Positions 3,553 through 55,490 of a stretch of 64,000 bases of DNA are shown in pieces. The notes beneath the pieces are model-generated. The model did no database searches. It saw only the letters and a list, made by a program, of their open reading frames with translations, and had not been told where the DNA came from. The position numbers and the translations under genes are program-made. Position 1 is the first letter of the stretch; each line of letters begins with the position of its first letter. The stretch covers positions 1,949,001 through 2,013,000 of the forward strand of contig NZ_BSDR01000001.1 of NCBI RefSeq assembly GCF_027925305.1. The letters are read 5' to 3'. The DNA is from Desulforhabdus amnigena (GTDB lineage Bacteria > Desulfobacterota > Syntrophobacteria > Syntrophobacterales > Syntrophobacteraceae).

Positions 3553-8143
<4,591 letters not shown>

Positions 8144-33880: not shown

Positions 33881-33890
33881 ATGAAACGCC

Positions 33891-36556: not shown

Positions 36557-38018
36557 TTAGAATGAGCATACCTTCAATGTGCACCCCAAGAATCGAGAAC
36601 GATAGTGACTTTGTCGGGCCTGAAGCCTTCTTTTTCGTCTCCAGCGGGACCAGGCCAACCGAAATTCAGGAGAGTGTACTGGCAAGGGCAGAACGATTTC
36701 AAGCAGTCGCCTCACCTCTGGAACTGTCAGCTCGGCCAGCTCTGCGTCTTTTTTTCCCCTCCTCCGAAGCCCGGATCGAGCTCAGCCAGGTATGGGCCAT
36801 CATAGAGAGGGTAATGTGACGATGCCAGCTGTGCCAGTACCTGACTTCATAGTGATCAAGCCCGGCTTCTCCTTTGCCTTCCTCAAAGCATTGCTCAATG
36901 GTGTAGCGGGTCGATGCCACCTGGGCAAGACGAGTGAGAGGAACATTCTCGGGAGCAAAGCAAAGGTAGTAGGCCATTTCTTCGGGTTTGGCTACAGATC
37001 GTCTGGCCAGAAGCCAGACCTCAGGTCCGGGGAGCTTGCCACGGCTCTCGATCACACGAACCCTTGCCCAGTCATAAGTTCTCGGTCCCTTTTCTCCTTT
37101 TGCCACACTGAACCGCTTCCAGACATCAGGAGACCATCCCATCACCACCTCAGCCACCGTCCCGGCATGCGGAGCATCCTTGGCCAACCGTACCCTTGTG
37201 GGTGGCCTGCCCATCCCTTTGCGCAAGGGCTGTTGGAGCAACGGTCGCCTGGTCCAAACGGGGGTATTGCAAGAGACTGCCAAGACATACCAGTGTCCAC
37301 TCTCCTGGATAGCTGCTCGAAGTTTCGGAGAATCCCCGTAGATCTCATCTCCTGTGACCCAGCGTATCGGGACACCCATTTTCCAGGCATGATCGAGCAT
37401 CGAGAAGGCCTGTTCGGGCTTGGTCTCAAACACCACCTCATCAGGAACCTTCGCCCCCTTGCGTCTTACCATGTCATTGGCCCAGTCCTCGGGAAGAAAG
37501 AGTCTTCTGTCCAGGAACACATGTCCTTTGGCCGAGGAATAGGTGAGGAAGGTTCCCACCTGAGAGTTTTCCACCTTCCCGGCCGTACCCGTGTATTGTC
37601 TTTTCACCCCGACAGACTTATCACCTTTTTTGATAAAACCCGTCTCATCTACGACTCCAATTCCTTCCGGGTCTGCAAAATTCTCGATCACGAACTGCTC
37701 CAAAATATCCCGTGCCTCATCCGCATCCCAGTTCACTCGGTAAAGCAGCCTTTCCATCTTATCCGGTCTCTTATCTCCTATGGCCTCAGCCATCTGCCAG
37801 CCGTTCTTGCGCTCAACGGGTGCAAGCAAGGAGTGAAGGTATTTTGCCGACTGTTCCCGAGATTGCGCCCGGGGGAATAGATGAGAAAAACGAGCATGAA
37901 AGGACCGAAAAGAATCTTCCCAATAATCCAACTCTTTCAACGTCATGACCGTTACCTCCGAAGGTTTCTCTACCTTATAATATATCCGGAAGTGCGGCAT
38001 TTTACATATGGCGGTTGT
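36542..38018 (-). mobile_element. IS701-family insertion sequence inside cas10
   Basis: 1477 bp, with perfect terminal inverted repeats ACAACCGCCATATG and CATATGGCGGTTGT. The flanks carry AGTACT on both sides (36536-36541 and 38019-38024); because AGTACT is palindromic and adjoins the ends, the duplication could be scored as 4 to 6 bp. One transposase gene, antisense to the cas operon. Fresh-looking ends suggest a recent event. Confidence 0.92.
36699..37946 (-). CDS. IS701-family transposase (IS4-type DDE)
   Basis: About 415 residues and intact. Signatures: YLHSLLAPVERKNGWQMAEA at the N-terminus, the first Asp in GIGVVDETGFIKKGDKSVG, the second in IRWVTGDEIYGD, and the Y-(2)-R-(3)-E type helix in STRYTIEQCFEEGKGEAGLDHYEVR. 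ATG 37946 has GGAGGT 7 bases upstream; the longer frame to 38030 reads out of the element. It points against cas10 and likely reduces transcription of the downstream csm genes unless an outward promoter exists. Confidence 0.93.
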   Translation of the reverse strand: MTLKELDYWEDSFRSFHARFSHLFPRAQSREQSAKYLHSLLAPVERKNGWQMAEAIGDKRPDKMERLLYRVNWDADEARDILEQFVIENFADPEGIGVVDETGFIKKGDKSVGVKRQYTGTAGKVENSQVGTFLTYSSAKGHVFLDRRLFLPEDWANDMVRRKGAKVPDEVVFETKPEQAFSMLDHAWKMGVPIRWVTGDEIYGDSPKLRAAIQESGHWYVLAVSCNTPVWTRRPLLQQPLRKGMGRPPTRVRLAKDAPHAGTVAEVVMGWSPDVWKRFSVAKGEKGPRTYDWARVRVIESRGKLPGPEVWLLARRSVAKPEEMAYYLCFAPENVPLTRLAQVASTRYTIEQCFEEGKGEAGLDHYEVRYWHSWHRHITLSMMAHTWLSSIRASEEGKKRRRAGRADSSRGEATA

Positions 38019-38056
38019 AGTACTAATCAAGGGAGGAAACTACCAAAGAGAAAACA

Positions 38057-40228: not shown

Positions 40229-40229
40229 A

Positions 40230-40625
40230 ATGAAGGATTACAGTTTCTACAAGGATCCGGCTAAACGCACAGTGAAACCTGAACTTTTTTCCAATATGGC
40301 AGAAGGCCTGGCAAAGTGCATTGATCAGGCTGATCCCAAAAAGAATAAGCGGACACAAATCAGAAAGTTCTACGATGAAGTGGTGCGGCTCAATGCTCAG
40401 GCGCGAAGCTATCCCCAGGACTGGGACAAAATTCTTCCTCTCGTAAACATGATCATCGCCAAAGCGGCCTATGCCGAAGGACGGAAACTGGTCACAAACG
40501 ATTTCGTCGAATTTTTGAAGGAATCTATTCGTCAGGTGCAAAATGCAGAAGACCTGGATGTGTTTGCCAATCTGTTCGAGGCCTTCATGGGATTTTACAA
40601 AAAATACCGTCCGTCGGACAACTGA
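40230..40625 (+). CDS. csm2: Type III-A small subunit Csm2
   Basis: Small alpha-helical subunit of 131 residues lining the Csm complex along the crRNA. KRTQIRKFYDEVVRLNAQ is the typical Csm2 helix, followed by KILPLVNMIIAKAAYAEGRKLV and a FLKESIRQVQNAEDLDVFANLFEAF helix. ATG 40230 has GGAGGG upstream and sits one base after the cas10 stop. The frame is open further upstream into cas10 but without homology. Confidence 0.92.
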   Translation: MKDYSFYKDPAKRTVKPELFSNMAEGLAKCIDQADPKKNKRTQIRKFYDEVVRLNAQARSYPQDWDKILPLVNMIIAKAAYAEGRKLVTNDFVEFLKESIRQVQNAEDLDVFANLFEAFMGFYKKYRPSDN

Positions 40626-40644
40626 TGCAAAGGGGACCATTACC

Positions 40645-41364
40645 ATGCAACTTTTGAATATCTTGAACATCAAGGGAACCATTACGCTAAAGAGCGGCCT
40701 TCACATCGGGGCTGGAGATGTGGAAATGCATATCGGTGGTACAGACAACCCCATCATTAAACATCCTAATACCCAGGAACCTTATATTCCCGGCTCTTCC
40801 ATCAAAGGCAAGGTGCGTTCGCTACTGGAATTGAAAAGCGGACTGGTAGTCAAAACGGACGGCAACCCATTGAGTGCTAGGTTGTTGAAAGGATTGAAAG
40901 GCGAAGAGCGACAGGAGTGCGAGACCATTCTCAAGTTGTTCGGGAGCAGTGGGGCCGATGGAGAGGCCGTGGCGGAATTGGGTCCCAGCCGGGTGTCCTT
41001 CGCCGATTGCCCTATCACCAAGAACTGGCAAGAGAAGGTACGACAGAGTCGGTGGAGCCTCACGGAAGTGAAATCCGAAAACAGTATAAACCGCATCAAG
41101 GGTACTGCCGAAAACCCTCGTTTTACTGAACGGGTGCCGTCGGATACGGAATTCGCTTTTTCCGTGTGTTTGAAGGTTCTCAAACCAGAGGAGGAACAAC
41201 CATTGTTGGAAGCACTCCTCCAGGGTCTGAAGCTCCTGGAGTTGGATGCCCTCGGAGGCAGCGGCAGCCGTGGCTATGGCAAAGTGCAGTTTCGTTTCGA
41301 AGATGAAAGCATCCAAAAGCGCTTTGAAAGCATCGACCTCTTTTCCAGGGGAGGAAAACTTTGA
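40645..41364 (+). CDS. csm3: Type III-A RNA-cleaving backbone subunit Csm3
   Basis: Cas7-fold backbone protein of 239 residues that cuts target RNA at 6-nt steps. SGLHIGAGDVEMHIGGTDNP contains the catalytic Asp (Asp34), equivalent to Asp32 of the Staphylococcus protein; YIPGSSIKGKVRSLLE and the final GGSGSRGYGKVQF are RAMP signatures. So RNA cleavage looks intact. ATG 40645 is inside a longer frame and marks the start of homology. Its stop TGA overlaps the TTG start of csm4. Confidence 0.94.
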   Translation: MQLLNILNIKGTITLKSGLHIGAGDVEMHIGGTDNPIIKHPNTQEPYIPGSSIKGKVRSLLELKSGLVVKTDGNPLSARLLKGLKGEERQECETILKLFGSSGADGEAVAELGPSRVSFADCPITKNWQEKVRQSRWSLTEVKSENSINRIKGTAENPRFTERVPSDTEFAFSVCLKVLKPEEEQPLLEALLQGLKLLELDALGGSGSRGYGKVQFRFEDESIQKRFESIDLFSRGGKL

Positions 41365-42380
41365 AGCTTTATGCCATCAGTCTTGAACCGATTTCGGGGT
41401 TTGGAACTCCCCTGAAGGGAGACACCCTGTTCGGGCACTTTTGCTGGCAGGCAGCTTATGATTCCAAACTCCTCAATGGCGGACTCGATAAATGGATCGA
41501 CTGCTACGGAAAAAAACCCTGCGTCGTCTTTTCCTCGGCAATGCCATATTTTTCCGGGCAATCCACTCCCTATGCCGTAAAACGACCGGATCTCCCCCGA
41601 TCCTATCTATTCAACAAGCTGAAGGAGAAACCAAACAAGCGTGAACAAATAAGCGCCCGCAAAGAAGACAGCAAAAAAAAGTGGATGCTCCTGGAGAAAT
41701 CATTGACCATAAATCTGGACAAGCCTCTATTTCGAACAGACGCCGATCTTGCTGGAATGGTGGCCGGGGAGAATTTATCCGGCAGTTTTCGATGTTCCTT
41801 CGAACAGCCCCACAACACCATCAACCGGTTGACTTTGACCACTGGAGAAGGTGCCTTTGCCCCTTTTGCAGAAACCGTGCATTTTTATATGCCGGAAACA
41901 GAGCTGGCTCTCTTTGTACTTGTGGATGAGACAGCTACGGACCTTGAGCGTGTTTGCACGGCTCTCGAACGTATGGGACAGTTCGGCTACGGAAAGAATG
42001 CCTCCACCGGTTTGGGACGCTTTCGACTGGGATCTCTGCGTGAAGAGGTTTCCTTGCCATCGGGTCAAGCCTTCAATGCCTGCTATGCACTGGCGCCGGT
42101 GGTACCGGAAAGGGGGAGATTCTCAAAAGCCTTTTTCCAACCCTTTGTGCGTTTTGGAAAACACGGCGATGAGCTGGCCCGTTCTCCTCATCCCTTCAAG
42201 AATCCCGTTATCATGGCGGATGAAGGAGCCGTGTTCCTTCCGGCCACCGAAGCAACGGAAGAGGTTTTCCTCAAGCCTTATATCGGCACTGCCGTGAAGA
42301 ACATTTCCAAAGCTTTGAAGTCTTCTGTCGTGCAGGGTTATGCACCCTATGTACCCTTCCATCTGGAGGTAAACTCATGA
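41361..42380 (+). CDS. csm4: Type III-A subunit Csm4 (Cas5-like)
   Basis: Cas5-family RAMP of 339 residues that holds the crRNA 5' tag and contacts Cas10. Opening YAISLEPISGFGTPLKGDTLFGHFCWQ is the standard Csm4 start; LERMGQFGYGKNASTGLGRF is the C-terminal Gly-rich loop. The start is TTG 41361 after GGGGAGGA, overlapping the csm3 stop as TTGA. The end overlaps csm5 as ATGA. Confidence 0.92.
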   Translation: MKLYAISLEPISGFGTPLKGDTLFGHFCWQAAYDSKLLNGGLDKWIDCYGKKPCVVFSSAMPYFSGQSTPYAVKRPDLPRSYLFNKLKEKPNKREQISARKEDSKKKWMLLEKSLTINLDKPLFRTDADLAGMVAGENLSGSFRCSFEQPHNTINRLTLTTGEGAFAPFAETVHFYMPETELALFVLVDETATDLERVCTALERMGQFGYGKNASTGLGRFRLGSLREEVSLPSGQAFNACYALAPVVPERGRFSKAFFQPFVRFGKHGDELARSPHPFKNPVIMADEGAVFLPATEATEEVFLKPYIGTAVKNISKALKSSVVQGYAPYVPFHLEVNS

Positions 42381-43882
42381 CACAACCCATCCGCTATTGC
42401 CTCCAAATCTTGTCCCCTGTCCATGTCGGATGTGATGAAGTCTATGAACCCACGGCCTTTTTCCTGGATGAGGCTTCTCAAACCCTTTGCCCGTTCGACC
42501 CTCTTCGTTTCATTGGAGGGTTGAGCGAAGCCGACCAAAAAAAATTCAGTGAGATCTGTCAGAGGGGAACCATCCCCTCCATCCTGGAACTTTACAAGTT
42601 TGTAAGGGCCAGGGGCAACCCCGACCTGGCCCTGCACAAGGTTTCGGTATGTTCCGGACTTTTGGAGAACTTTCGCAAAACGCTTTCTCTGCCTGCAAAC
42701 AATGTAAAGGCCATTCAGCAGGACTTGAATAATTTCGCTATTCAGCGCACGGCTTTCCTTCCAGCATCTCAACGCCCATATATCCCGGGGTCGGCCATCA
42801 AGGGGGCACTGAGAACGGCCTATCTCAATGGGCGTGCCCAGAAGAAGGGGCGCATTCGGACCTCTCAGGGCAAAGGTGCCGCCCGAGACCTGGAAAAGAG
42901 CCTGCTGGACGGAGGTTCATTTGACACCGATCCTTTCAGGCTCATCAAGGTGTCCGATTTTCATCCCGTGGGCGAAGTCAGAACCCGTATCATTTATGCG
43001 GTCAACCGCAAAAAACAACCTTCAAAACTTAAAGGCTTTGAAGGCCAGGGGCCCTTCCAGATTATGGAAGTCATTCAACCGGGATCGGTCTTCGAAGGAT
43101 GGATCACGGTAGACGAGGGTCCTCCCAGATCCAGAGTGGCTGTGCCATTGAATATGAAAACGGTCTTAGAAAGTGCGACGATTTTCTTCCGCAAGGAGTG
43201 TCAGCGTGAAAACCTGGACCTGGAGAGGATTGGCGCTGCTCAGATCAAAATGAATATTGCCGAACATGGAATCCCTTTGCGCCTGGGCCGCCATTCCGGG
43301 GCGGAATGCGTGACGATCGAAGGCTACCGGGATATCAGGATAAAACTTGGCAACGGAAAATTCAAACAGAGCAATGCCGCAACGACGTTGTGGCTGACGG
43401 GTGATTCCAGCAAGCCCAGGGACAATGGAGGACTCAAGCCTTTTGGCTGGGTTTCCCTTAAAGAAGTAAGCGGAGATGTGTGGAAAAAGCTGGATGCTCT
43501 GGAGGTAGAATATCGGGACAGATTGACCGGGATAAAAGATAAGGCCGAGGTTTCAAAAGATGCACACGCCCACGGTACGGTGTCTGCCACAGAGAAGCCT
43601 CTGCCGGTATCCTCTCGAGAGGCTGTGGAAAAAGTCCATCCCCCTACACCAAGGGTAATAGAGAAACGCCAACCCAGCTCAAAGGACCTCCTTTCACAGG
43701 CGTCCAGTTTCCGATCCAACGACAAGATTACGCTGGAACGCTTGATAAAGGCTCTTGATGCGCTAGAAGATCAATCTTTAGCTCACAAGGTCGCGGAAGT
43801 GATCAAGAACAAGCTGATCCAGGCGGGAACATGGAAAAAGCATCCGCTCAGGGCAGAAATCGAATTTTATCTTGAGGAGTGA
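42377..43882 (+). CDS. csm5: Type III-A subunit Csm5
   Basis: RAMP protein of 501 residues capping the crRNA 3' side. CLQILSPVHVGCDEVYEPTA, the basic YIPGSAIKGALRTAYLNGR and GIPLRLGRHSGAECVTIEGY are typical. The C-terminal roughly 120 residues are extra and low in complexity (TEKPLPVSSREAVEKVHPPT), followed by a small helical piece. Overlaps csm4 and csx20 by 4 bases each, giving tight coupling. Confidence 0.92.
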   Translation: MTQPIRYCLQILSPVHVGCDEVYEPTAFFLDEASQTLCPFDPLRFIGGLSEADQKKFSEICQRGTIPSILELYKFVRARGNPDLALHKVSVCSGLLENFRKTLSLPANNVKAIQQDLNNFAIQRTAFLPASQRPYIPGSAIKGALRTAYLNGRAQKKGRIRTSQGKGAARDLEKSLLDGGSFDTDPFRLIKVSDFHPVGEVRTRIIYAVNRKKQPSKLKGFEGQGPFQIMEVIQPGSVFEGWITVDEGPPRSRVAVPLNMKTVLESATIFFRKECQRENLDLERIGAAQIKMNIAEHGIPLRLGRHSGAECVTIEGYRDIRIKLGNGKFKQSNAATTLWLTGDSSKPRDNGGLKPFGWVSLKEVSGDVWKKLDALEVEYRDRLTGIKDKAEVSKDAHAHGTVSATEKPLPVSSREAVEKVHPPTPRVIEKRQPSSKDLLSQASSFRSNDKITLERLIKALDALEDQSLAHKVAEVIKNKLIQAGTWKKHPLRAEIEFYLEE

Positions 43883-44283
43883 AAATTGCCGTGGTGAAGC
43901 AAATGCTTTTTCTCTTCAACCATCAACCCACTGCAGAACAGATGATGGATGCGGAAAGGACCCTCGAAGTCGGTGACATCATTTATCCACCGGAAGATCT
44001 ACAAGCCCTCTGGGGCCGGATCCCACCGGATATGGCCGCCCTCGAGCCTTTCCTCGAACCGTTTAAAAACTGGCTCCGGAAATCAGCCCATCCGGGAGAC
44101 TTCGTCCTCATCCAGGGAGATTATGGAGCCACTTACCTCATGGTGCGCTTCGCCATGGAACACGGACTCATACCGGTGTATGCCACCACGCAAAGAAAGG
44201 CTGTAGAGGAACCGTTACCTGACGGTTCCATTCGCCTGGTGCATCATTTTGTTCACCAAAGGTTCAGAAAATACGGAGTGTAG
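43879..44283 (+). CDS. csx20: Csx20-family type III accessory protein
   Basis: 134 residues from GTG 43879; GTG 43891, GTG 43894 and ATG 43903 are alternative starts, since family members begin near LFLFNHQPTAEQ. LQALWGRIPPDMAALEPFL, DFVLIQGDYGATYLMVRFA, GLIPVYATTQRKAVEE and HHFVHQRFRKYG match Csx20. These small proteins occur in type III loci with CARF effectors and have been proposed to bind or degrade cyclic oligoadenylate; that activity is not shown by the sequence. It overlaps csm5 (GTGA) and precedes the CARF nuclease by 27 bases. Confidence 0.82.
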   Translation: MKIAVVKQMLFLFNHQPTAEQMMDAERTLEVGDIIYPPEDLQALWGRIPPDMAALEPFLEPFKNWLRKSAHPGDFVLIQGDYGATYLMVRFAMEHGLIPVYATTQRKAVEEPLPDGSIRLVHHFVHQRFRKYGV

Positions 44284-44310: not shown

Positions 44311-45492
44311 ATGAAAAAGTGTTTAGTATGTCTTGTAAGCGATCAGACCATCCCCAATATCACAGTCATCTTGCACTTTGAGCCGGATTTTCTTCTTTTC
44401 GTAACAACTCCACTCATGGAAGGTAAAGGAAAGACTCAGGCTATCTTGAACACGCTGATTCATCGAGGTCATGATTATTTGGAACGGCACGCCAGGGTGG
44501 AAGTACAGGAAGATTCACTTCTAGGCTTTGAATCTGCTGTATCTCGTTGGATCAGTCAGGCCCCGGAAGAATATGACTTTACCGTGAACTTGACGGGAGG
44601 CACCAAGCTCATGTCCATTGCAGCTTACGACCTCTTTTCATCTTTCGGAAGTGAAATGGTCTATGTGCCGATCCCTAGAAACGAATTTCTGACACCCTTT
44701 CCCAAACGGCGCCCCCGGAAACCCACGCCTTTGAAGGCTCGTCTCTCGGTGACCGAATATCTCACTGCGTACGGATTTACCGTCAGTAACGAAGCCCAGC
44801 TGGCTGGATATCGTAAAGAGGCCGAAGCCAGAGAGGTAATGACACGGTTCATCTTTCAGAACTATGAAGCTCTGTTCCCCCTGTTGAAATGGCTGGGAAA
44901 CGAGCTGCGCCCTCTAAAGTCCAATCAAGTCCAAAAGGGTTATGATTTTTCAGGTATTTTTCAAATTTCAACGGATGTTGAGGCGGAATTCTTGAAAAAC
45001 CTCAAATTCGATAAGGATGGCGACCGATTCTGTAAACGTATCTATAAAACAGACTGGACTTACCTGCGGGGTGGATGGCTCGAAGACCGTCTGTATCTGG
45101 CCGTGCGAGAGGCGCTCCCTTCCTCGGCAAATGTGGAACTCAACGTTGTATGTAAAGATCCTAAAGGAAATCAAAACGAATTTGATGTTCTGTTCACCTT
45201 GGACAACGCTTTGTATCTCGTCGAATGCAAATCATTGAGTGCGTCGGAGGGCGGTGGAGAAAAGATAGGAATCCCCGAATTTCTTTACAAACTGGGTGCG
45301 CTTCGCCAGAGTTTCGGACTCACACCGAGAGCCTACCTCGCAACCACGGCGGATAGCATCCTGGACAAGAGCGGACAGGTCAAATCGCACTTGATTGAAC
45401 GAGCAGGGCAGTTTAGCACCAAGCTCATACCTCTTCTGGTCATGAAGGACATAGAGGGGTTTTTCCGTAATGAATTCAGTGCGAAAAGTTAA
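44311..45492 (+). CDS. Card1/Can2-type CARF nuclease (DUF1887)
   Basis: 393 residues. Residues 1 to about 150 form a CARF domain (KKCLVCLVSDQTIPNI at the first strand, TVNLTGGTKLMS as the ligand loop) expected to bind cyclic tetra-adenylate. The C-terminal half is a PD-(D/E)xK nuclease: Glu290 and Asp292 in NEFDVLF, then Glu305 and Lys307 in YLVECKS. Relatives Card1 and Can2 cut single-stranded nucleic acid, or nick DNA, when activated. It lies straight after csx20, so signal effector and possible signal control are paired. Confidence 0.9.
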   Translation: MKKCLVCLVSDQTIPNITVILHFEPDFLLFVTTPLMEGKGKTQAILNTLIHRGHDYLERHARVEVQEDSLLGFESAVSRWISQAPEEYDFTVNLTGGTKLMSIAAYDLFSSFGSEMVYVPIPRNEFLTPFPKRRPRKPTPLKARLSVTEYLTAYGFTVSNEAQLAGYRKEAEAREVMTRFIFQNYEALFPLLKWLGNELRPLKSNQVQKGYDFSGIFQISTDVEAEFLKNLKFDKDGDRFCKRIYKTDWTYLRGGWLEDRLYLAVREALPSSANVELNVVCKDPKGNQNEFDVLFTLDNALYLVECKSLSASEGGGEKIGIPEFLYKLGALRQSFGLTPRAYLATTADSILDKSGQVKSHLIERAGQFSTKLIPLLVMKDIEGFFRNEFSAKS

Positions 45493-45552: not shown

Positions 45553-47328
45553 GTGCACACCAAAATCACCGAGGTGCTTTTGCCAACAGACACCCTGCTC
45601 CAAAAAGCCCGAACATCTCTCGATTCCGGCAATGAATCCCAGGCGCGGGACTGCGCTCAACGGGCTGCAAGCCAGGAATACTGTTCTGCCAAGCTCTGTA
45701 CGGCCTGGGCCGAGATCTGCGAGGAACTGGGAATGGCCCGGCTCGCCCGGGAATTTTATGAGAAGACTCTCCGCCTGAGTCCCAATCATGCGGGGGCACT
45801 CTACGGCTTGGCGGCGCTTCTCGCCGAAGGCGGGCATGTGGAGAAGTCCGTCCGGCACCTGAAAAAACTCCTGAAACTCGATCCCTCTCACGTCAAAGGC
45901 AAGGCCCTTCTTGCGGAACATTATCAGGCTATGGGGCTCCCCGGGCAGGCGGCCGCCCTGAAACCAGCCTCCGCAACCCAGGAAGCCCCCTCGCCTCTGC
46001 GTTCCTTCAAGCCATCGGTGAGCCGCGCGGACACAGAGCGGCTTTTGAAGCTCTTTGCAGGCCGCGAGCAGGGCTTTGCGCTCCAGGAGATTCATCCCAC
46101 AACGGGTGAAAGCAGTTATGTGTTTCAAGCGGGAAGCCTCACTCATGAAACCATTGCGGCCCATATCCTGGGGGACTTGAATCTTGGAATTTATTCCCTT
46201 CGCTCCGACAACACCGTCTGTCATGCAGCCGTCCTGGTGCACGTTTCCGGGGCCATGATGGAAGCCGCCCGGAGAAATGCCTCTACCGTGGCCCTATTCG
46301 GAGAAAAACTGCATCGGCACCTGGTCCTTCTGGTTCGCCATGCCGTTCAGTTGGGTTTGCCCGCCTATGTGGAGGCGACGGGTTCGGTGCAGGGCCGCCT
46401 CTGGTTCTTTTTTGACGGATTTCTGCACTTCCTCAAGGTCAAACGGTTTCTAAAGGATTTTCTGGAGCATGCACCCGAACCGGAAACTCCCCTCGTGGTC
46501 GAACCGCTCCTTCCCACACAGCCAGTCGGCATCGGCTGGGAGGAACAGGCCATCCCGATGCCCCTGGGACTGGATCGGGCCACTTTGCAACGCTCCTTTT
46601 TCCTGGACCGGGAAGGAAAGGTGGAAGGGGAACAACTCAAGCTCCTGCACCGCATCCGCCGGATTCCTCTAAATTCCCTGCATGCTTCCCGGCTTCATTG
46701 CGACGGACGCCAGGAAAGGGTTGCTGTGTGGGAAGGCCGGCGCCACGCTTCCTTCAAGCGGATCCTGGAAAGTTGTTCGATCCTCAACGAACTGGTGCGC
46801 AAAGCTGTTTCCGGGCGCATACTGCGCCGGGAAGAAAAAGTGGTTCTCTTCTACACATTGGGCTGGTTGGAGCAGGGAGCAGAGATCCTGCACGAGTGTC
46901 TCCAGGCCTGTCCCGACTACCAGTACGAGAGTGTCCAGCGCCAGGCGGCCCGCCTCAAGGGCCATCCCATGAGCTGCGTCAAGATCCGGGAGTTGATACC
47001 TGAAGTCACCTCCGTGCTCGACTGCAATTGCAGCTTCGACCTGCGTGGGGGTAAGTACCCTTCACCCCTTTTGCACGTGCACCCGCACATGGTCCCTGCG
47101 GCGGAAACCTTTGTCGTTCCTGAAGATTTGTCCCTGCGAGAAGCTGGAAGGCGGTATGTGGCTTTGCGTCTCCACCTCCAGGAGTCGGAAAAGGCTCTCC
47201 TGAGGTTGGAAAGGATATTGGAAAAAGGCTTCACGCGAAAAAAGCTCTCTTCCCTGCGGGTGGATCAGTTCAATCTTCTGCGGGTGGAGGAGGAAAATGG
47301 TGTGACCTGGAAAATGGAGCGTGCGTGA
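45553..47328 (+). CDS. CRISPR-associated primase-polymerase homologue with degenerate active site
   Basis: 591 residues from GTG 45553 (GAGAGGTG upstream). Residues 20-135 are TPR-like helices; 165-355 an archaeo-eukaryotic primase fold (REQGFALQEIHP, HILGDLNLGIYSLRSDNTV, AYVEATGSVQGRLWFFF, IPMPLGLDRATLQRSFFLD); 395-510 a PriL-like domain with four Cys (Cys408, Cys475, Cys491, Cys493) for an Fe-S cluster, ending YPSPLLHVHPH. In active relatives the strand after DNTV ends in Asp-x-Asp; here it is VLVHVS (His230, Ser232). The second-motif His before LW is Arg282. So it looks unable to polymerise. It overlaps cas1, tying it to adaptation. Confidence 0.8.
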   Translation: MHTKITEVLLPTDTLLQKARTSLDSGNESQARDCAQRAASQEYCSAKLCTAWAEICEELGMARLAREFYEKTLRLSPNHAGALYGLAALLAEGGHVEKSVRHLKKLLKLDPSHVKGKALLAEHYQAMGLPGQAAALKPASATQEAPSPLRSFKPSVSRADTERLLKLFAGREQGFALQEIHPTTGESSYVFQAGSLTHETIAAHILGDLNLGIYSLRSDNTVCHAAVLVHVSGAMMEAARRNASTVALFGEKLHRHLVLLVRHAVQLGLPAYVEATGSVQGRLWFFFDGFLHFLKVKRFLKDFLEHAPEPETPLVVEPLLPTQPVGIGWEEQAIPMPLGLDRATLQRSFFLDREGKVEGEQLKLLHRIRRIPLNSLHASRLHCDGRQERVAVWEGRRHASFKRILESCSILNELVRKAVSGRILRREEKVVLFYTLGWLEQGAEILHECLQACPDYQYESVQRQAARLKGHPMSCVKIRELIPEVTSVLDCNCSFDLRGGKYPSPLLHVHPHMVPAAETFVVPEDLSLREAGRRYVALRLHLQESEKALLRLERILEKGFTRKKLSSLRVDQFNLLRVEEENGVTWKMERA

Positions 47329-48419
47329 TGGCTGTAGCGTATGTAATGGAGCAAGGTGTGACCTTGAATCGGGAAGGAGAGCGACTGGTGGTGCGTAAAG
47401 GCAGCACCACCCTCCATGCCCTTCACCTGTTCAAGCTGGAACAACTCGTTGTCATGGGAAACGTTTCGCTTACGCCCCCGGCCTTGACTTGCCTGCTGGA
47501 TTCCGGGGTGGACACAGTCTTCATGTCCCTGAACGGTCGTTACAAGGGGAGGCTTCAGAGCCCCCTCAGCAAGAATATCACCCTGAGATGCGACCAGTTT
47601 CGCCGGTTGGGAGATTCCGCTTTCTGCCTGAATGCCGCTCGATCCATCGTGGCCGGGAAGATCAACAACCTGCGCACTGCGCTGCAGCGGCTCAACCGCA
47701 GCCGGGAAACCCTGGAACTGGACGATCACATCCTGGAATTGAAGCAGTTGGGACAAAAAGCGGTTGAAGCGGAAAACCTGGAAATCCTGCGTGGTTATGA
47801 AGGCCGAGCGGCGGTCCGCTATTTTGACGGTTTTGCACGGGGCTTCCTGGCGGAAGGAGTGACCTTCGCCCGCCGGGTCCGCCGCCCGCCTACGGACCCG
47901 GTAAACGCTCTACTGAGCCTGGGGTATACACTCCTCTTCAATACGGTCATGGCAGCCGTGAGCCTGGTGGGCTTCGACCCTTACCTCGGCTGTCTTCATA
48001 CCGTGGATTACGGTCGGCCTTCCTTGCCCCTGGATCTCATGGAAGAATGGCGACCGGTCATCGTGGACTCTCTCGTTTTGAGCGTTTTCAATCTCAAGGT
48101 CATTACCCTGGAGGATTTCATATGTACTCCCCCATCCCTGGAAGAAGACGCTCCAGACCCACTTGACCCCTTGGCCGATGATGAAGAAGAAACTGAAAAG
48201 TCGCAAGGCAAGAACCCGGCGGCACTGCCCGTCAGGCTCACGGACACTGGATTTCGCAAATTCATCACCCAGTTCGAAAGAAAGATGGGGGAAAAAGTGC
48301 GATTTCACCTGACGGACCAACATTTTTCCTACCGCGACTGCATTCGGGAACAGGTGCGCCATTTCGCTCGAGTCGTTCGAGGTGAGGAGGCCGTTTACCG
48401 TCCCGTGGCTTGGAGGTGA
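47328..48419 (+). CDS. cas1: CRISPR integrase Cas1 (type III-A locus)
   Basis: 363 residues from ATG 47328, overlapping the primase-polymerase stop. The three catalytic sites are present: Glu in LRGYEGRAAVRYF, His in GCLHTVDYGRPS, acidic cluster in LPLDLMEEWRPV. An unusual acidic insert (LEEDAPDPLDPLADDEEE, near residues 270-288) lies before the C-terminal helices and is absent from the I-C Cas1 at 2040. It is clearly a different Cas1 lineage from that one. Confidence 0.95.
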   Translation: MAVAYVMEQGVTLNREGERLVVRKGSTTLHALHLFKLEQLVVMGNVSLTPPALTCLLDSGVDTVFMSLNGRYKGRLQSPLSKNITLRCDQFRRLGDSAFCLNAARSIVAGKINNLRTALQRLNRSRETLELDDHILELKQLGQKAVEAENLEILRGYEGRAAVRYFDGFARGFLAEGVTFARRVRRPPTDPVNALLSLGYTLLFNTVMAAVSLVGFDPYLGCLHTVDYGRPSLPLDLMEEWRPVIVDSLVLSVFNLKVITLEDFICTPPSLEEDAPDPLDPLADDEEETEKSQGKNPAALPVRLTDTGFRKFITQFERKMGEKVRFHLTDQHFSYRDCIREQVRHFARVVRGEEAVYRPVAWR

Positions 48420-48424
48420 AGTCC

Positions 48425-48700
48425 ATGCATGTACTGGTTTCCTACGATATCGTTGACAATAAAACCCGGACCCGCGTGATGAAACATCTCAAGAACTACG
48501 GGCAAAGAGTGCAATTGAGTTGCTACGAATGCGATCTCGATGAATCCATGTACCAGCAGATGAAGGAAGGGGTGGAACAACTCATCGACAAAAAGATGGA
48601 CAGCGTACGCTATTACCGCCTCTGCAAGGGGTGCCTGCATAACGTTATCATTTGCGGCTGGGGGGAAGTCCGGGAAGATGAAGGTTTTGAGATCATCTGA
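48425..48700 (+). CDS. cas2: Cas2, first of two tandem copies
   Basis: 91 residues. HVLVSYDIVDNKTRTRVMKH with the conserved first-strand Asp, NYGQRVQLSCYECDL, then YYRLCKGCLHNVIICG with a CxxC pair. ATG 48425 follows GGAGGTGA; a TTG earlier in frame is unlikely. It lies 5 bases after cas1. A second, distinct cas2 follows after 35 bases. Confidence 0.94.
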   Translation: MHVLVSYDIVDNKTRTRVMKHLKNYGQRVQLSCYECDLDESMYQQMKEGVEQLIDKKMDSVRYYRLCKGCLHNVIICGWGEVREDEGFEII

Positions 48701-48735
48701 ATGGAGTCGGGATCTTCTTATGGAGGAAACGGACC

Positions 48736-49029
48736 ATGGCAACAAGAATCAACCATATCCTGGCCAGCTATGATATCAGCCATCCACGGAGACTCCAGCG
48801 TGTGGCCAAAATCATGCGTGATTATGGCGACCGGGTGCTGAAAAGCGTTTTTGAATGCCATTTGAGCGATGCGGATTTTCAGCGAATGAAGGAACGCATC
48901 GAAGAAACCATCGACCACACGGAAGACTGCGTGCGTTTCTATTTCGTTTGTGATAAATGTTTAGGACGTGTGGAGGTTTCAGGCCTGGGTGAGGGGTTTG
49001 TTGATGAAGTTGAGTTCATCATCACATGA
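48736..49029 (+). CDS. cas2: Cas2, second tandem copy
   Basis: 97 residues, the same fold as its neighbour but clearly divergent: INHILASYDISHPRRLQRVAK, DYGDRVLKSVFECHLSD, FYFVCDKCLGRVEVSG. It too has Asp in the first strand and a CxxC pair. GGAGGAAAC-type ribosome-binding site near 48722. The leader of the type III array begins directly after its stop. Confidence 0.93.
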   Translation: MATRINHILASYDISHPRRLQRVAKIMRDYGDRVLKSVFECHLSDADFQRMKERIEETIDHTEDCVRFYFVCDKCLGRVEVSGLGEGFVDEVEFIIT

Positions 49030-49265
49030 GTGCGCGAAACAGGGAAACAACGGCGGTTGATCTTTAAGTAACGGAAGATACAGGTAAAAGTAAATCGAGT
49101 GCCAACAGGTTGGCGCAATACAATTAAATTAAATGATTTCAAATAGATATCAGCTAATCCTTTAGATAAAGAGGAATGAGAGATGATGCAAAAACAAAAT
49201 AAAAGTCCAGGTTCGCGTAACGACATACGTACTCCCCTTGTAATCCTCAACTGTATGAGGCCGCA
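49030..49265 (+). promoter_or_regulatory. Leader of the type III-A array
   Basis: 236 AT-rich bases without a gene. GCCAAC-AG-GTTGGC (49101-49114) is a perfect 6-bp hairpin. CCTCA (49245-49249) pairs with TGAGG (49256-49260) just 5 bases before the first repeat. AGGTTCGCG near 49209 also occurs in the I-C leader at 3406, perhaps by chance. Pre-crRNA transcription is expected rightward. Confidence 0.7.
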
Positions 49266-52200
49266 GCCGGAAAACCTGACCTGATGAATAAGGGATTGCG
49301 ACCCTTCCTTGCTGAAGGGTGTGATTTTAGCCTTTGCGCCGGAAAACCTGACCTGATGAATAAGGGATTGCGACAACACGAGGTTCGATGGAAATTGAAA
49401 TGACGCTCTGTGCCGGAAAACCTGACCTGATGAATAAGGGATTGCGACTGTTCGATGTACAGCTTCAATCTTTCGATCATTTCTATGCCGGAAAACCTGA
49501 CCTGATGAATAAGGGATTGCGACTTCATTACATCTTCATCGGTTATATCTTTGGGGACCGAGGCCGGAAAACCTGACCTGATGAATAAGGGATTGCGACA
49601 TCTTCGTCACTACTCCCTTTCTACCTTCGCTGGGCTTGCCGGAAAACCTGACCTGATGAATAAGGGATTGCGACTAGGCGTGCAAAAGCCTGATGGTGAT
49701 ACCTGATGCTAGGCCGGAAAACCTGACCTGATGAATAAGGGATTGCGACTGTTAGTGTTAGTGTTAGTGTTAGTGTCGTTTATCGGAGTGCCGGAAAACC
49801 TGACCTGATGAATAAGGGATTGCGACACTCCTTGCTCGCTGCCGTCTTGTCAGCTAACTTCTGCGCCGGAAAACCTGACCTGATGAATAAGGGATTGCGA
49901 CCGGAAGATTTTTATATTCACACCTCCCTATCTCAGCGAGCCGGAAAACCTGACCTGATGAATAAGGGATTGCGACTGTAAGTTCATAGTTTCATTCCTC
50001 TTTCAGGAGTTAGTGCCGGAAAACCTGACCTGATGAATAAGGGATTGCGACGTAACGCGTACGGGAACGGTATCTTTCCGGGCCTTATCCGCCGGAAAAC
50101 CTGACCTGATGAATAAGGGATTGCGACTTTCTGTACGTCTTACCGATATGATTACCATTACCGCATGCCGGAAAACCTGACCTGATGAATAAGGGATTGC
50201 GACATTATTTTCTCACGCCTGTTTTTCCAGCTGTTCGCCTGGCCGGAAAACCTGACCTGATGAATAAGGGATTGCGACCAGGCTGCCCTTGCTTGATAAG
50301 GATCGATTTGTCTTGCCGGAAAACCTGACCTGATGAATAAGGGATTGCGACAGGGTAGAAGGCGGACGTTTGTACCGTTTCTGTACGTGCCGGAAAACCT
50401 GACCTGATGAATAAGGGATTGCGACCTTCCGTATTCGCGCTCATATCAATCTTCCTTCCTTTCGCCGGAAAACCTGACCTGATGAATAAGGGATTGCGAC
50501 GTCTTTGACATCTTCATAGACACACTTGACTTTGCGCCGGAAAACCTGACCTGATGAATAAGGGATTGCGACATCTTCTTGTCTGTCTTACCTTTCCCAC
50601 GCTCCTTTTTGCCGGAAAACCTGACCTGATGAATAAGGGATTGCGACATGTACATAAGCATTTCATAGCAACTAGATGGCCAGGCGCCGGAAAACCTGAC
50701 CTGATGAATAAGGGATTGCGACATTGTATTCCCTCTGTCATTTATCAGACTTGGTTTGGAGCCGGAAAACCTGACCTGATGAATAAGGGATTGCGACACA
50801 CGGGTTACTGTTGCCATTTTAGGCTCCTTTTAGAGGCCGGAAAACCTGACCTGATGAATAAGGGATTGCGACAGGTTATACAAAAGGGGATGAAAGGGCA
50901 TAGCACCGGGCCGGAAAACCTGACCTGATGAATAAGGGATTGCGACCAGACGCAGCCTTGTAATGTTTGCGCTCTCCCCTGTTAAGCCGGAAAACCTGAC
51001 CTGATGAATAAGGGATTGCGACGTCACTTTGTGACATTATTTTCTCACGCCTGTTTTTCGCCGGAAAACCTGACCTGATGAATAAGGGATTGCGACTCTG
51101 CAGTAGCTATGACTGATTTTATCTCGTTGTAACTGCCGGAAAACCTGACCTGATGAATAAGGGATTGCGACCCGATTAGCTGATCACGTATTGTCCAGTA
51201 TTTAATACGCCGGAAAACCTGACCTGATGAATAAGGGATTGCGACATGCGACGGAGCAGATCGGTACTCCGCCGGAGGTTTTAAGCCGGAAAACCTGACC
51301 TGATGAATAAGGGATTGCGACGATATGATTACCATTACCGCATAAACATTTTTATGACATGCCGGAAAACCTGACCTGATGAATAAGGGATTGCGACCAG
51401 GATGATGGAGTCGGTGGGGCGGAGCTGTAAGAGGCCGGAAAACCTGACCTGATGAATAAGGGATTGCGACCGAGGCCGGGGAGGTTGATACCGAGAGAAG
51501 CCATGAGCCGGAAAACCTGACCTGATGAATAAGGGATTGCGACTCGCAGAGACCTGAGATTTGGTACTCGCGAATGCCGGGCCGGAAAACCTGACCTGAT
51601 GAATAAGGGATTGCGACGCAATGACAGAATCTACTAACGATGCCTTGGACTGTCTGCCGGAAAACCTGACCTGATGAATAAGGGATTGCGACTCTTTCTT
51701 ATTTAAGATTGTTTTCTTGTTACAGTCTGCCGGAAAACCTGACCTGATGAATAAGGGATTGCGACCCACTTTGTGACAATGCTTTCTTAACTCCTCTGTT
51801 ACAGCCGGAAAACCTGACCTGATGAATAAGGGATTGCGACATAGAAGTATCTTCACTCAATTTCCAAGTCATGATCTTCGCCGGAAAACCTGACCTGATG
51901 AATAAGGGATTGCGACATCTTAAAAACCAATGTTTCCTGTCCCGCCGCTTCCAGGCCGGAAAACCTGACCTGATGAATAAGGGATTGCGACTTGCCCTCT
52001 ATTTGCCCTTTTAACGGGCTTTATGGGCCGGAAAACCTGACCTGATGAATAAGGGATTGCGACAAGGCATTCAGCGCATGACATGGCAAACCTCCTCATC
52101 GCCGGAAAACCTGACCTGATGAATAAGGGATTGCGACCTCGAGGAGGGACAAGCCGAAGCCTGCCCCTCGCCTATGCCGGAAAACCTGACCTGATGAATA

Positions 52201-55200
52201 AGGGATTGCGACTATTTTCTGGCGATTCTATTGATGAATGATTGTTTGCCGGAAAACCTGACCTGATGAATAAGGGATTGCGACATGGTAAAGAGTTTGG
52301 TATCAAGGATGACCATGTAGGCCGGAAAACCTGACCTGATGAATAAGGGATTGCGACATCGCCACAGCTTTTGCATACATGAGCAGCTTCTACCGCCGGA
52401 AAACCTGACCTGATGAATAAGGGATTGCGACACACATAATATACCACTGTTACTTACTATTCTATCTAAGCCGGAAAACCTGACCTGATGAATAAGGGAT
52501 TGCGACTTGTTTTTTGCCCACCGTTTGAGTATCCCCCTTGCCGCCGGAAAACCTGACCTGATGAATAAGGGATTGCGACAGCGGCTTTTTCGAGCATTTT
52601 TTCGGTATGCCGCTTGGCCGGAAAACCTGACCTGATGAATAAGGGATTGCGACGGATACTTCCCCGTATCGATTGGTGTAGCGGTCCACAGCCGGAAAAC
52701 CTGACCTGATGAATAAGGGATTGCGACATGAGAGCGTTGGCGCGATCCGCGGAAGATGCGGAATGCCGGAAAACCTGACCTGATGAATAAGGGATTGCGA
52801 CAAAAGATTGGTAAAATTCATATTGGTTCCTTTCTGTGCGCCGGAAAACCTGACCTGATGAATAAGGGATTGCGACGGGCACTCTTCCGAGAGTGCCTTT
52901 TTCTTTTCGTCCTTGCCGGAAAACCTGACCTGATGAATAAGGGATTGCGACCGCTCTTCAACCCAATGGTCCTTCTTGCCTTCCATGGGCCGGAAAACCT
53001 GACCTGATGAATAAGGGATTGCGACACGTACCGTGCAAGCTCACCCTTCTGATTACGATACAGCCGGAAAACCTGACCTGATGAATAAGGGATTGCGACG
53101 GTCATATACTCGAAGCGTTCCATATCTTAGTCCATGCCGGAAAACCTGACCTGATGAATAAGGGATTGCGACAATGGAATGACGTTGGCATTGGCATTGC
53201 TCATAAGATGCCGGAAAACCTGACCTGATGAATAAGGGATTGCGACTGACAAAAGTACCCGTAGGAGCTTGCCTTCCGCTGCAAGGCCGGAAAACCTGAC
53301 CTGATGAATAAGGGATTGCGACCGATAAATGTCGTTATCCGAGAATGGAACTGTATTGCCGGAAAACCTGACCTGATGAATAAGGGATTGCGACCCGGTT
53401 GCCGATCTTAGTTGACCCACTGTCCGGTGAGCCGGAAAACCTGACCTGATGAATAAGGGATTGCGACTCGATTGCCGGTCACCTTGATTGATTCCAAGCT
53501 TGGGCCGGAAAACCTGACCTGATGAATAAGGGATTGCGACCCCGGTACACATCCCTTGATCGGTGCCAGTGAGATGTTGCCGGAAAACCTGACCTGATGA
53601 ATAAGGGATTGCGACCCCGGTACACATCCCTTGATCGGTGCCAGTGAGATGTTGCCGGAAAACCTGACCTGATGAATAAGGGATTGCGACCGTATCGCCG
53701 TGCAACCGCTTCGGCACCGGCTATGAAAGCCGGAAAACCTGACCTGATGAATAAGGGATTGCGACCCAACCATAGGTGCGGATGATTCCAACCGTGAGGG
53801 AAAGGCCGGAAAACCTGACCTGATGAATAAGGGATTGCGACAAAACCGTGCCGCTGAGCGTTTTAAACCGTGACATATTGGCCGGAAAACCTGACCTGAT
53901 GAATAAGGGATTGCGACTCTTCTACCGATGAAGTATTCAAGCTTTTGGTTCAGGGCCGGAAAACCTGACCTGATGAATAAGGGATTGCGACCCGTTTCTT
54001 CCATCAGTGATATGGTATCCTTGCCGATCGCCGGAAAACCTGACCTGATGAATAAGGGATTGCGACGTTCCCATATCCACCGGATTGCAAAGCCCATTTC
54101 CTTGCCGGAAAACCTGACCTGATGAATAAGGGATTGCGACTCATCTATTCCGTCCACGTATTCTTTGATAAGTTCAAAGGCCGGAAAACCTGACCTGATG
54201 AATAAGGGATTGCGACGTCCTTTCCGTTGTGCTTCCGTATCCATTCCCTGAGCCGGAAAACCTGACCTGATGAATAAGGGATTGCGACATATACAACACC
54301 CCGCCCATACCAGACAGCTTTTTGCCCGCCGGAAAACCTGACCTGATGAATAAGGGATTGCGACAAATTTTTATCTTAGTTGGTTGGTTTGGTTGTTGTA
54401 TTGCCGGAAAACCTGACCTGATGAATAAGGGATTGCGACATCATAAGAACCAAGGCAATTTCAGCCATTGATCGCAACGCCGGAAAACCTGACCTGATGA
54501 ATAAGGGATTGCGACACACATCAGGTGAACTGATTCCTGTAAATTTATTCCGCCGGAAAACCTGACCTGATGAATAAGGGATTGCGACCTTCTCCTCCCT
54601 AAAATTCAACCTGTTTCATCTGCTCTTGGCCGGAAAACCTGACCTGATGAATAAGGGATTGCGACACCCAGCACCTACGATCAATGCCCGTCATCTTCTC
54701 CAAGCCGGAAAACCTGACCTGATGAATAAGGGATTGCGACGTTTGGCTGACTCTCTCTTGATGTTCTCGAAGATTTCCTGGCCGGAAAACCTGACCTGAT
54801 GAATAAGGGATTGCGACAATCGAAAGGAACACCCATCTTGTAGAGGATATGGAGGCCGGAAAACCTGACCTGATGAATAAGGGATTGCGACAGTCCCAGG
54901 GCTGGATTGATTTGTTTTCGGTTCCCCCCTGCCGGAAAACCTGACCTGATGAATAAGGGATTGCGACGCGGCGGCATCATCCGTTTTGGGAATACATCCA
55001 AAGTGCCGGAAAACCTGACCTGATGAATAAGGGATTGCGACACAAATCCCACACGGCCGATATCCCGCTTTGATCGCATGCCGGAAAACCTGACCTGATG
55101 AATAAGGGATTGCGACTGCGATAATGAACCAATCGGTTCCTATTCAATGTGATAAGCCGGAAAACCTGACCTGATGAATAAGGGATTGCGACTTTGCTTA

Positions 55201-55402
55201 ATTGCAATTCTAAAATTTTTTGCTTGACATTAAGCCGGAAAACCTGACCTGATGAATAAGGGATTGCGACAGAGGCACTCGAGGATCCTAGCGTCTATCT
55301 CATGCGCCGGAAAACCTGACCTGATGAATAAGGGATTGCGACCTTTACCCACCCCTTCCAGTCTAGCAAGCTAGACTACCGCCGGAAAACCTGGCCTGAT
55401 GA
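49266..55402 (+). CRISPR. Type III-A CRISPR array, 83 repeats and 82 spacers
   Basis: 37-bp repeat beginning GCCGGAAAACCTGACCTGAT and ending AAGGGATTGCGAC, so ATTGCGAC would be the crRNA 5' tag. I counted 82 full copies from 49266 to 55306 and a last degenerate one at 55381 (first 22 bases, one mismatch). Spacers are 35-41 bp. Direction follows from cas1-cas2 and the leader on the left and the repeat end. Spacers 58 (53541-53578) and 59 (53616-53653) are identical. Spacers 12/28 and 13/24 overlap in sequence. All three minus-strand frames of the repeat are stop-free, which explains long false reading frames on that strand. Confidence 0.99.
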
Positions 55403-55490
55403 GAGGCTTCTCGGGATTTAAATCCGAAAGCAAGGCGGGGTGCGGGTATAGGGGCGTTGCGGGGGAGTAAAGCCCTGGGGGTGGCAGGAG
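55381..55490 (+). other. Truncated terminal repeat fused to the same hairpin element as the I-C array
   Basis: The last repeat stops after CTGATGA (with one G for A change), then GAGGCTTCTCGGGATT, then TAAATCCGAAAGC (55402-55432). It matches 8162-8190 at about 27 of 32 positions. The stem here is CGGGATTT against AAATCCG with one bulge. Its possible continuation GAGTAAAGCCCTG near 55476 resembles 8250. From 55490 to 55663 I see no gene. Confidence 0.7.

What the first reader, a model, noticed from the sequence alone, without database searches (positions are those of the whole stretch)
49977..54628. Type III spacers are repeatedly antisense to ribosome-binding sites and start codons
Reading the complement of the spacers (the strand a crRNA would bind) shows translation starts again and again. 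Spacers 10 (49977), 16 (50426), 21 (50798), 38 (52064) and 48 (52802) each contain a good Shine-Dalgarno, proper spacing, then ATG and an open frame; for example AAAAGGAGCCTAAAATGGCA in 21. Spacers 20 (50723) and 72 (54589) end in a Shine-Dalgarno. About ten more, such as 30, 50, 53, 62, 70 and 78, have ATG near the start of the complement and stay open. Plus-sense starts are scarce here, while the I-C array shows a few in the sense direction (spacers 23, 33). It fits an RNA-targeting system, but the enrichment at 5' ends is more than strand choice alone predicts.
Basis: partly seen in the sequence, partly recalled or inferred. Interest (0 to 1): 0.7.

Follow-up and report, generated by a model that had tools for sequence, protein, structure and literature searches.

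The report
CRISPR spacers antisense to messenger RNA
This large CRISPR array carries memories that would pair with the messenger RNA of unknown invaders, sometimes over the ribosome-binding site; in this one array the number of such hits is about what strand choice alone predicts, although many related arrays taken together hint at a modest extra preference for gene starts.

Summary
The sites are real: the complements of spacers 10, 16, 21, 38 and 48 each hold a Shine-Dalgarno, proper spacing, ATG and an open frame. The array belongs to a type III-A locus with a CAPP-Cas1-Cas2 adaptation module; no reverse transcriptase was found there.

Within this array the count does not exceed strand choice: at threshold -7, 3 of 81 unique spacers are antisense start sites, while the phylum's I-C spacers, both strands counted, predict 2.7. 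The 'about ten' early ATGs are near chance.

Pooled over the phylum (1,384 type III-A spacers, 41 loci; 1,827 I-C spacers, 30 loci), strand bias is overwhelming: 63 antisense to 4 sense in III, 29 to 32 in I-C. After subtracting shuffles, III holds 1.7-3.2 times more start sites than I-C (array bootstrap P 0.0008-0.077 by detector); uncorrected counts do not show it clearly. Strand bias is known; gene-start enrichment has a laboratory precedent.

By-product: CAPP-linked arrays hold hairpin spacers 3.8 times above shuffles, I-C 1.8 times. No convincing protospacer was found, so positions along genes remain unproven.

The parts
35047..36000 (+). cas6
   Evidence: Pfam CRISPR_Cas6 5.7e-23, over cut-off; NCBIfam cas6 1.4e-5, below its cut-off
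36113..36556 (+). HD-domain part of a split cas10
   Evidence: Pfam HD and Cas3_HD, PADLOC Cas10 N-terminal part; the frame ends inside the insertion sequence
36534..38026 (.). insertion sequence of 1,493 bp lying between the two parts of cas10
   Evidence: perfect 22-nt terminal inverted repeats, DDE_5 transposase frame 36699-38030 on -, three near-identical copies in the genome
38057..40228 (+). rest of cas10/csm1
   Evidence: Csm1 7.7e-168, profile positions 109-753; GGDD at residue 528
40167..40625 (+). csm2
   Evidence: NCBIfam 1.7e-15, over cut-off
40543..41364 (+). csm3
   Evidence: NCBIfam 3.1e-63, over cut-off
41361..42380 (+). csm4
   Evidence: NCBIfam 1.4e-16, over cut-off
42377..43882 (+). 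csm5
   Evidence: NCBIfam 2.6e-16, over cut-off
43879..44283 (+). csx20
   Evidence: NCBIfam 1.2e-44, over cut-off
44311..45492 (+). Card1-like CARF nuclease
   Evidence: Pfam CARF_Card1 3.7e-27 and Card1_endonuc 5.8e-11
45553..47328 (+). CRISPR-associated primase-polymerase, CAPP type A1
   Evidence: NCBIfam PrimPol_Msp 3.8e-89, over cut-off; Pfam AEP-TOTE
47325..48419 (+). cas1, no fused reverse transcriptase domain found
   Evidence: Pfam Cas_Cas1 3.6e-86 only
48386..48700 (+). first of two tandem cas2 frames (stop to stop)
   Evidence: Pfam CRISPR_Cas2 9.4e-24
48691..49029 (+). second tandem cas2 frame (stop to stop)
   Evidence: Pfam CRISPR_Cas2 2.9e-22
49030..49265 (+). leader (inferred)
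   Evidence: lies between cas2 and the first repeat, opposite the degenerate end
49266..55417 (+). type III-A array: 82 exact 37-nt repeats, 82 spacers, degenerate last repeat from 55381 (its right edge inferred from repeat length)
49977..50014 (-). spacer 10: complement holds SD, ATG, open frame
   Evidence: -6.0
50426..50463 (-). spacer 16: same
   Evidence: -7.5
50798..50835 (-). spacer 21: same
   Evidence: -7.9
52064..52100 (-). spacer 38: same
   Evidence: -13.0
52802..52839 (-). spacer 48: same
   Evidence: -5.6
51023..51059 (-). spacer 24: complement reads TAATG then an open frame; overlaps spacer 13, and resembles the start read in spacer 34 (51766-51803)
   Evidence: read by eye; overlap 13/24
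3553..8109 (+). type I-C array, 69 repeats, 68 spacers, used as control

Best explanation
An ordinary type III-A array whose crRNAs pair with transcripts of phages or other mobile elements. Only antisense spacers let a Csm complex bind nascent mRNA, so antisense spacers are kept, and a few percent of random antisense 38-mers cover a ribosome-binding site and start codon. In this array that alone accounts for the count. Across the phylum's type III-A arrays there is probably a further, modest (roughly two-fold) surplus of start sites. I think its most likely cause is that effective type III spacers come from early regions dense in small genes, where starts lie about twice as close together; ribosome-free initiation RNA as a better target is the next candidate. 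Shown: the locus anatomy, the antisense bias, the pooled surplus over shuffles. Inferred: that the targets are mobile-element mRNAs, that selection causes the strand bias, and that early genes are the source of the surplus.
For: Type III-A genes. Target-strand purine 0.570 in the window, 0.553 in 1,065 other CAPP-linked spacers, 0.479 in the window's I-C array. Start sites at -7: III 63 antisense, 4 sense of 1,384; I-C 29 and 32 of 1,827. Window 5/4/3/1 antisense sites at -5/-6/-7/-8 against 7.5/4.5/2.7/2.1 expected from I-C both-strand rates. Pooled shuffle-corrected excess 3.08% [2.00, 4.63] in III against 1.03% [0.32, 1.79] in I-C at -7. Small-gene clusters: Shewanella phage 3/49, 9 CDS in 31810-34190, one per 264 nt, against 574 for the genome. 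Literature: type III spacers average 65% coding strand (PMC8482600, passages); strand and early-region bias ascribed to selection in Thermus (PMC7515739, passages).
Against: No protospacer supports it; that the small-gene clusters are early regions, and that these spacers hit them, is not shown. The surplus is detector-dependent: bootstrap P 0.077 with the strict detector, and 0.19 for CAPP arrays alone with it. Uncorrected III-antisense against I-C both-strand rates: P 0.03 in the opposite direction at -5 (99 of 1,385 against 170 of 1,827), no difference at -6 (P 0.88), 0.08 at -7, 0.15 at -8. The III and I-C arrays come mostly from different hosts. ATG positions within spacers do not cluster visibly, which neither helps nor harms.
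Confidence: 0.74

Rival explanations
1. Spacers over ribosome-binding sites are specifically selected, because the initiation region is ribosome-free, accessible RNA (and a bound crRNA also blocks translation), so they protect better and are retained.
For: The start-site signal is on the target strand only (63 to 4), appears with and without CAPP, and SD words (GGAGGT, AAGGAG, GAGGTA, AGGAGG) are among the 14 most over-represented 6-mers of the type III target strand, while none is in the 14 listed for I-C. Some arrays hold several overlapping spacers at one RBS (L077 32/35, L104 10/13, L203 24/25).
Against: Gene-start density in small-gene regions could give the same surplus. The window array shows none beyond strand choice. 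The pooled surplus is small and detector-dependent.
Confidence: 0.25
2. The adaptation machinery prefers gene starts, for instance the displaced coding strand behind a stalled RNA polymerase, before any selection.
For: Review PMC9048733 (sections 10 and 11 read) tells of S. thermophilus III-A spacers enriched about 10-50 bp downstream of start codons and at stem-loops. Hairpin spacers are enriched in CAPP-linked arrays, so some acquisition preference seems to be at work there.
Against: Our start sites are centred on SD-ATG, but the method cannot see sites 10-50 bp downstream. None of the 120 hairpin spacers holds a start site at -7, so the two signals are separate. Acquisition without selection showed no strong strand bias in Thermus (PMC7515739, passages), whereas start sites here are almost wholly one-stranded.
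Confidence: 0.15
3. Spacers are copied from RNA, as in RT-Cas1 systems.
For: Antisense bias.
Against: Cas1 carries only the Cas1 domain, and no RT family was hit in the proteins scanned at the locus; not every frame of the window was scanned. CAPP incorporates dNTPs poorly on RNA templates (PMC8211822, passages). Eight non-CAPP Cas1 frames also carry only the Cas1 domain. In Marinomonas even RT-Cas1 gave only a moderate bias (PMC5576922, passages).
Confidence: 0.04
4. There is no start-site signal at all: purine-rich message-strand DNA makes SD-like plus ATG patterns by chance.
For: Window sites barely exceed shuffles (6 against 4.3); early ATGs are near chance.
Against: Pooled antisense sites at -8 are 49, against about 13 in shuffled target strands (sum of the three type III rows); SD words are prominent among 6-mers.
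Confidence: 0.1

Closest known systems
Type III CRISPR arrays with coding-strand bias (Vink et al. 2021, PMC8482600, passages seen; Artamonova et al. 2020, PMC7515739, passages seen)
   Same: spacers antisense to transcripts; bias ascribed to selection for function
   Different: a term search for 'start codon' and 'ribosome' in both papers found no occurrence, so start-site enrichment is not treated there under those words
S. thermophilus III-A acquisition (Zhang et al. 2021, known here only through review PMC9048733, sections 10-11)
   Same: enrichment near start codons and at stem-loops
   Different: laboratory acquisition, 10-50 bp downstream of starts, no CAPP mentioned; here natural arrays, sites over SD and ATG, hairpins mainly with CAPP. 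In that work the coding strand was enriched at acquisition
CAPP-Cas1-Cas2 adaptation modules (PMC8211822, passages seen)
   Same: same gene set: CAPP beside cas1 and cas2 in a type III locus
   Different: in the passages seen that work is biochemical; here spacer content is examined, and there are two tandem cas2 frames
RT-Cas1 type III systems (PMC5576922, passages seen)
   Same: type III effector, functional spacers antisense
   Different: no reverse transcriptase found here

Membership tests
Type III-A CRISPR-Cas | Cas10/Csm1 with csm2-csm5 | tested here: met
   all five over NCBIfam cut-offs; cas10 is split by an insertion sequence, so whether the complex works is untested
Type III-A CRISPR-Cas | spacers antisense to transcripts | tested here: met
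   pooled 63 to 4 at start sites; purine bias in the window; window alone 3 to 0 at -7
Type III-A CRISPR-Cas | RNA-activated effector in this strain | not testable with these tools
   needs expression; the GGDD motif is present
CAPP-associated adaptation module | PrimPol of family NF040561 beside cas1 and cas2 | tested here: met
   299.6 bits against a cut-off of 200; cas1 and two cas2 frames follow
RT-Cas1 RNA-acquiring type III | reverse transcriptase fused to or beside cas1 | tested here: not met
   only Cas1 and primase domains in the adaptation genes
Gene-start-biased acquisition or retention | start sites above the rate given by strand choice, this array | tested here: not met
   5/4/3/1 observed, 7.5/4.5/2.7/2.1 expected
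Gene-start-biased acquisition or retention | start sites above the rate given by strand choice, pooled phylum | tested here: inconclusive
   shuffle-corrected bootstrap P 0.0008, 0.0032, 0.077 and 0.026 by detector; uncorrected Fisher P 0.14 and 0.08 at -7
Gene-start-biased acquisition or retention | protospacer positions peak at start codons | not testable with these tools
   no convincing protospacer found

The most novel reading that the evidence does not exclude
Type III-A arrays of this phylum carry two separate target preferences readable without any protospacer: a strand-specific surplus over ribosome-binding sites (with and without CAPP), and, where the adaptation module includes the primase-polymerase CAPP, a surplus of hairpin-forming spacers with little strand preference. 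The second would mean that CAPP steers Cas1-Cas2 to folded single-stranded DNA, perhaps by priming on or extending hairpins, giving CAPP a role in choosing what is remembered.
Probability: 0.25. Interest if true: 0.62.

Novelty: new member of a known kind. Interest (0 to 1): 0.36.

Why it matters
The array itself is ordinary. What matters is that the hunch could be tested on many arrays at once without knowing a single target: natural type III-A spacers show near-complete antisense bias at start sites and perhaps a two-fold preference for them, a pattern that I otherwise met only as laboratory acquisition in one species (PMC9048733). If the link between the CAPP polymerase and hairpin spacers holds in a larger set, it would be a spacer-level hint of what CAPP does in living cells, which the passages I saw of PMC8211822 leave as proposals.

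Tried and rejected
Protospacer search. 80 of 81 unique spacers (no. 82 left out) against INPHARED phages, blastn, E up to 1: no match. The same query against 26 genomes of the family, E up to 0.1: the array itself plus four weak matches (E 0.014-0.085, 23-28 bases), taken as chance and not examined further. Spacers 1-42 only against plasmids: one 25-base match in two Caballeronia records, E 0.1, taken as chance. L078 array against phages, near mode: none. L082 array against the 3 genomes of its genus: matches in and directly beside the arrays of two genomes, none in the third; not resolved further.

RNA-derived acquisition was rejected (no RT found at the locus). CAPP as the cause of the start-site surplus was rejected (non-CAPP arrays show it too). 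The simple SD-word rule was followed by a duplex-energy rule and a strict word rule; all are reported.

Rows dropped before counting: duplicate spacers; spacers outside 28-55 nt (CAPP set) or 26-50 nt or with N (other sets); one false repeat family in L102; one array of unfitting repeat in L157. Spacer 82 is only. The I-C set is 'arrays beside Cas8c/Csd1'; four of its loci (L158, L160, L183, L193) have repeats of another pattern. One search printed a gene count of 12 for 29450-32330 of Vibrio phage pYD21-A; on recount it is 11, and I do not use it.
Full report
What is there. The array has 82 exact 37-nt repeats at 49266-55342 and a degenerate last repeat from 55381. Upstream of it, on the same strand, lie cas6, a split cas10, csm2-csm5, csx20, a Card1-like CARF nuclease, a CRISPR-associated primase-polymerase (CAPP type A1), cas1 and two cas2 frames. 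So it is a type III-A locus with a CAPP-Cas1-Cas2 adaptation module. No reverse transcriptase was found among the proteins scanned there.

The observation. The five best cases (spacers 10, 16, 21, 38, 48) are as written: each complement holds a Shine-Dalgarno, fitting spacing, ATG and an open frame. I then scored all spacers with one rule: ATG, frame open to the end, anti-SD duplex energy in the stretch 17 to 5 bases upstream. The array gives 6 antisense sites at -5, with 4.3 +- 1.7 in dinucleotide shuffles (80 spacers), and 1 sense site (81 spacers). The early-ATG cases are near chance: 15 of 81 against 11.7 +- 3.2 shuffled, 8 on the other strand. Spacers 24 and 34 look like two versions of one gene start (read by eye), and spacer 13 overlaps spacer 24, so repeated sampling of one place adds to the impression.

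Is it more than strand choice? If antisense spacers are a random sample of the message strand, their start-site rate should be about the both-strand rate of a strand-indifferent system. I-C spacers of the phylum are such a system: 29 target-side and 32 sense-side sites at -7 in 1,827. They predict 7.5, 4.5, 2.7 and 2.1 sites in the window at -5, -6, -7 and -8; observed 5, 4, 3 and 1. In this array strand choice is enough.

Pooled test. CAPP over the family cut-off occurs in 49 of 395 sampled genomes of the phylum, the window's included. I took stretches of up to 20 kb on either side, where the contig allowed, from the 48 others and 4 weaker cases. With the window and the Desulfoferrobacter locus L010, the array finder gave 34 loci and 1,145 unique spacers. 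Stretches around Csm1 in 13 genomes without CAPP over the cut-off gave arrays in 7 loci, 239 spacers; stretches around Cas8c in 40 genomes, plus the window, gave 1,827 spacers in 30 loci. Type III arrays were oriented by the repeat's 3' end. At -7, spacers trimmed to 34 nt, antisense/sense: CAPP without the window 45/3 of 1,065 (shuffled 16.4/4.3); window 3/0 of 80 (1.6/0.6); non-CAPP 15/1 of 239 (3.2/1.0); I-C 29/32 of 1,827 (22.1/20.2). The picture is the same within GC bins, except that the low-GC bin has no I-C set. Six phage genomes tiled the same way show a both-strand excess of 0.62% on average, range 0.27-1.42.

With loci as bootstrap units the excess in type III is 3.08% against 1.03% in I-C at -7 (P 0.0008), 2.42% against 1.03% at -8 (P 0.0032), 2.29% against 1.37% with the strict word rule (P 0.077), and for a strong SD anywhere 1.40% against 0.44% (P 0.026). 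For CAPP arrays alone P is 0.010, 0.041, 0.19 and 0.096; for non-CAPP arrays 0.040, 0.014, 0.013 and 0.083. Against this, uncorrected comparisons are weak or reversed: strict rule, both strands, 48 of 1,384 against 47 of 1,827, P 0.14; III antisense against I-C both strands, 99 of 1,385 against 170 of 1,827 at -5 (III lower, P 0.03), no difference at -6 (P 0.88), 63 against 61 at -7 (P 0.08), 49 against 48 at -8 (P 0.15). Part of this is that the I-C figure sums the false positives of two strands. The k-mer test needs no motif chosen beforehand: of the 14 listed 6-mers most over-represented on the type III target strand, GGAGGT, AAGGAG, GAGGTA and AGGAGG are SD words, beside others such as AAGGCC and GCCGCC; none of the four is in the I-C lists. 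I conclude that the antisense bias is certain, that a start-site surplus of roughly two-fold is likely but not firm, and that it is not a property of CAPP.

How it most likely works. The Csm complex acts only when its crRNA meets a complementary transcript, so antisense spacers are the ones kept (PMC7515739, passages; PMC8482600, passages). A two-fold surplus at starts is what one expects if useful spacers come from early regions with small genes: in Shewanella phage 3/49 one stretch has a start per 264 nt against 574 for the genome; that such stretches are early, and are what these spacers hit, is inference. A direct advantage of ribosome-free initiation regions would look the same here. Acquisition bias is the third option: review PMC9048733 (sections 10 and 11 read) reports type III spacers enriched 10-50 bp downstream of start codons and at stem-loops in S. 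thermophilus; the paper I believed to be the original was not held.

A by-product. Looking for that stem-loop preference, I found that spacers of CAPP-linked arrays hold perfect stems of 6 or more far too often: 109 of 1,145 against 28.8 shuffled, compared with 87 of 1,827 against 49.4 in I-C and 8 of 239 against 7.5 in non-CAPP III-A; excess 7.0% [4.4, 9.4], 2.1% [0.6, 3.6] and 0.2% [-1.4, 1.8]. Leaving out the two largest arrays (L078, L082), 58 of 747 remain against 18.4 (sums). Terminator-like spacers are 11 on the target strand and 10 on the crRNA strand of 1,145 (shuffled 1.5 and 2.9), against 3 and 1 of 1,827 in I-C (shuffled 3.3 and 2.5). None of the 120 hairpin spacers (untrimmed) holds a start site at -7, and their target-strand purine share is lower (0.522), so this signal is separate from the start sites.

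Against a CAPP-only reading: at stems of 8 or more, non-CAPP arrays have as much excess as I-C (1.1% and 1.0%; CAPP 2.9%); by folding energy relative to shuffles, non-CAPP (-0.84 +- 0.19 kcal) lies near CAPP (-0.97 +- 0.10, 1,000 sampled) and below I-C (-0.40 +- 0.08, 1,000 sampled); one I-C array, L162, is itself hairpin-rich (14 of 83 against 2.1); non-CAPP arrays are few. The window shows little of it (3 of 80 untrimmed against 1.4; 2 against 1.1 trimmed). It is a lead, not a result.

Limits. No convincing protospacer was found, so no spacer has been placed on a real gene. Type III and I-C arrays come mostly from different hosts. Literature was searched in an open-licence library only; in those listings and the passages read I saw no paper on ribosome-binding-site enrichment in natural type III arrays, which does not show that none exists.

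Noticed in passing
36113-40228: cas10 is split: an insertion sequence (36534-38026, perfect 22-nt inverted repeats, DDE_5 transposase, three near-identical copies in the genome) lies between the HD part and the rest. The effector of this large array may be altered in this strain.
   Followed up: partly
just left of the window, G000:C1:1946881-1948668: The I-C cas8c frame reads through one TGA, so both CRISPR effectors of this strain may be impaired.
   Followed up: no
48386-49029: Two tandem cas2 frames with different sequences follow cas1.
   Followed up: no
CAPP-linked arrays, e.g. L010, L078, L082, L104, L140: Hairpin-forming spacers are 3.8 times above shuffles in CAPP-linked type III arrays (109 of 1,145 against 28.8).
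   Followed up: partly
pooled arrays; in the window spacers 12/28 and 13/24: Many spacers overlap another of the same locus by 15 or more bases on the same strand: 62 pairs in 1,145 CAPP-linked, 9 in 239 non-CAPP, 37 in 1,827 I-C spacers (opposite strand 5, 0 and 9). Several such places are ribosome-binding sites or terminators.
   Followed up: partly
52877-52914, spacer 49: The spacer reads as a strong hairpin followed by a T run, like an intrinsic terminator, on the crRNA strand.
   Followed up: no
53541-53653, spacers 58 and 59: Two adjacent identical spacers, a repeat-spacer duplication.
   Followed up: no
49750-49789, spacer 7: The spacer begins with tandem copies of TGTTAG, a low-complexity target.
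   Followed up: no
12559-13650: A peptidyl-arginine (agmatine) deiminase-like gene (Pfam PAD_porph 9.6e-123) and, at 15724-18831, a PAS/HisKA sensor kinase lie between the two CRISPR loci.
   Followed up: no
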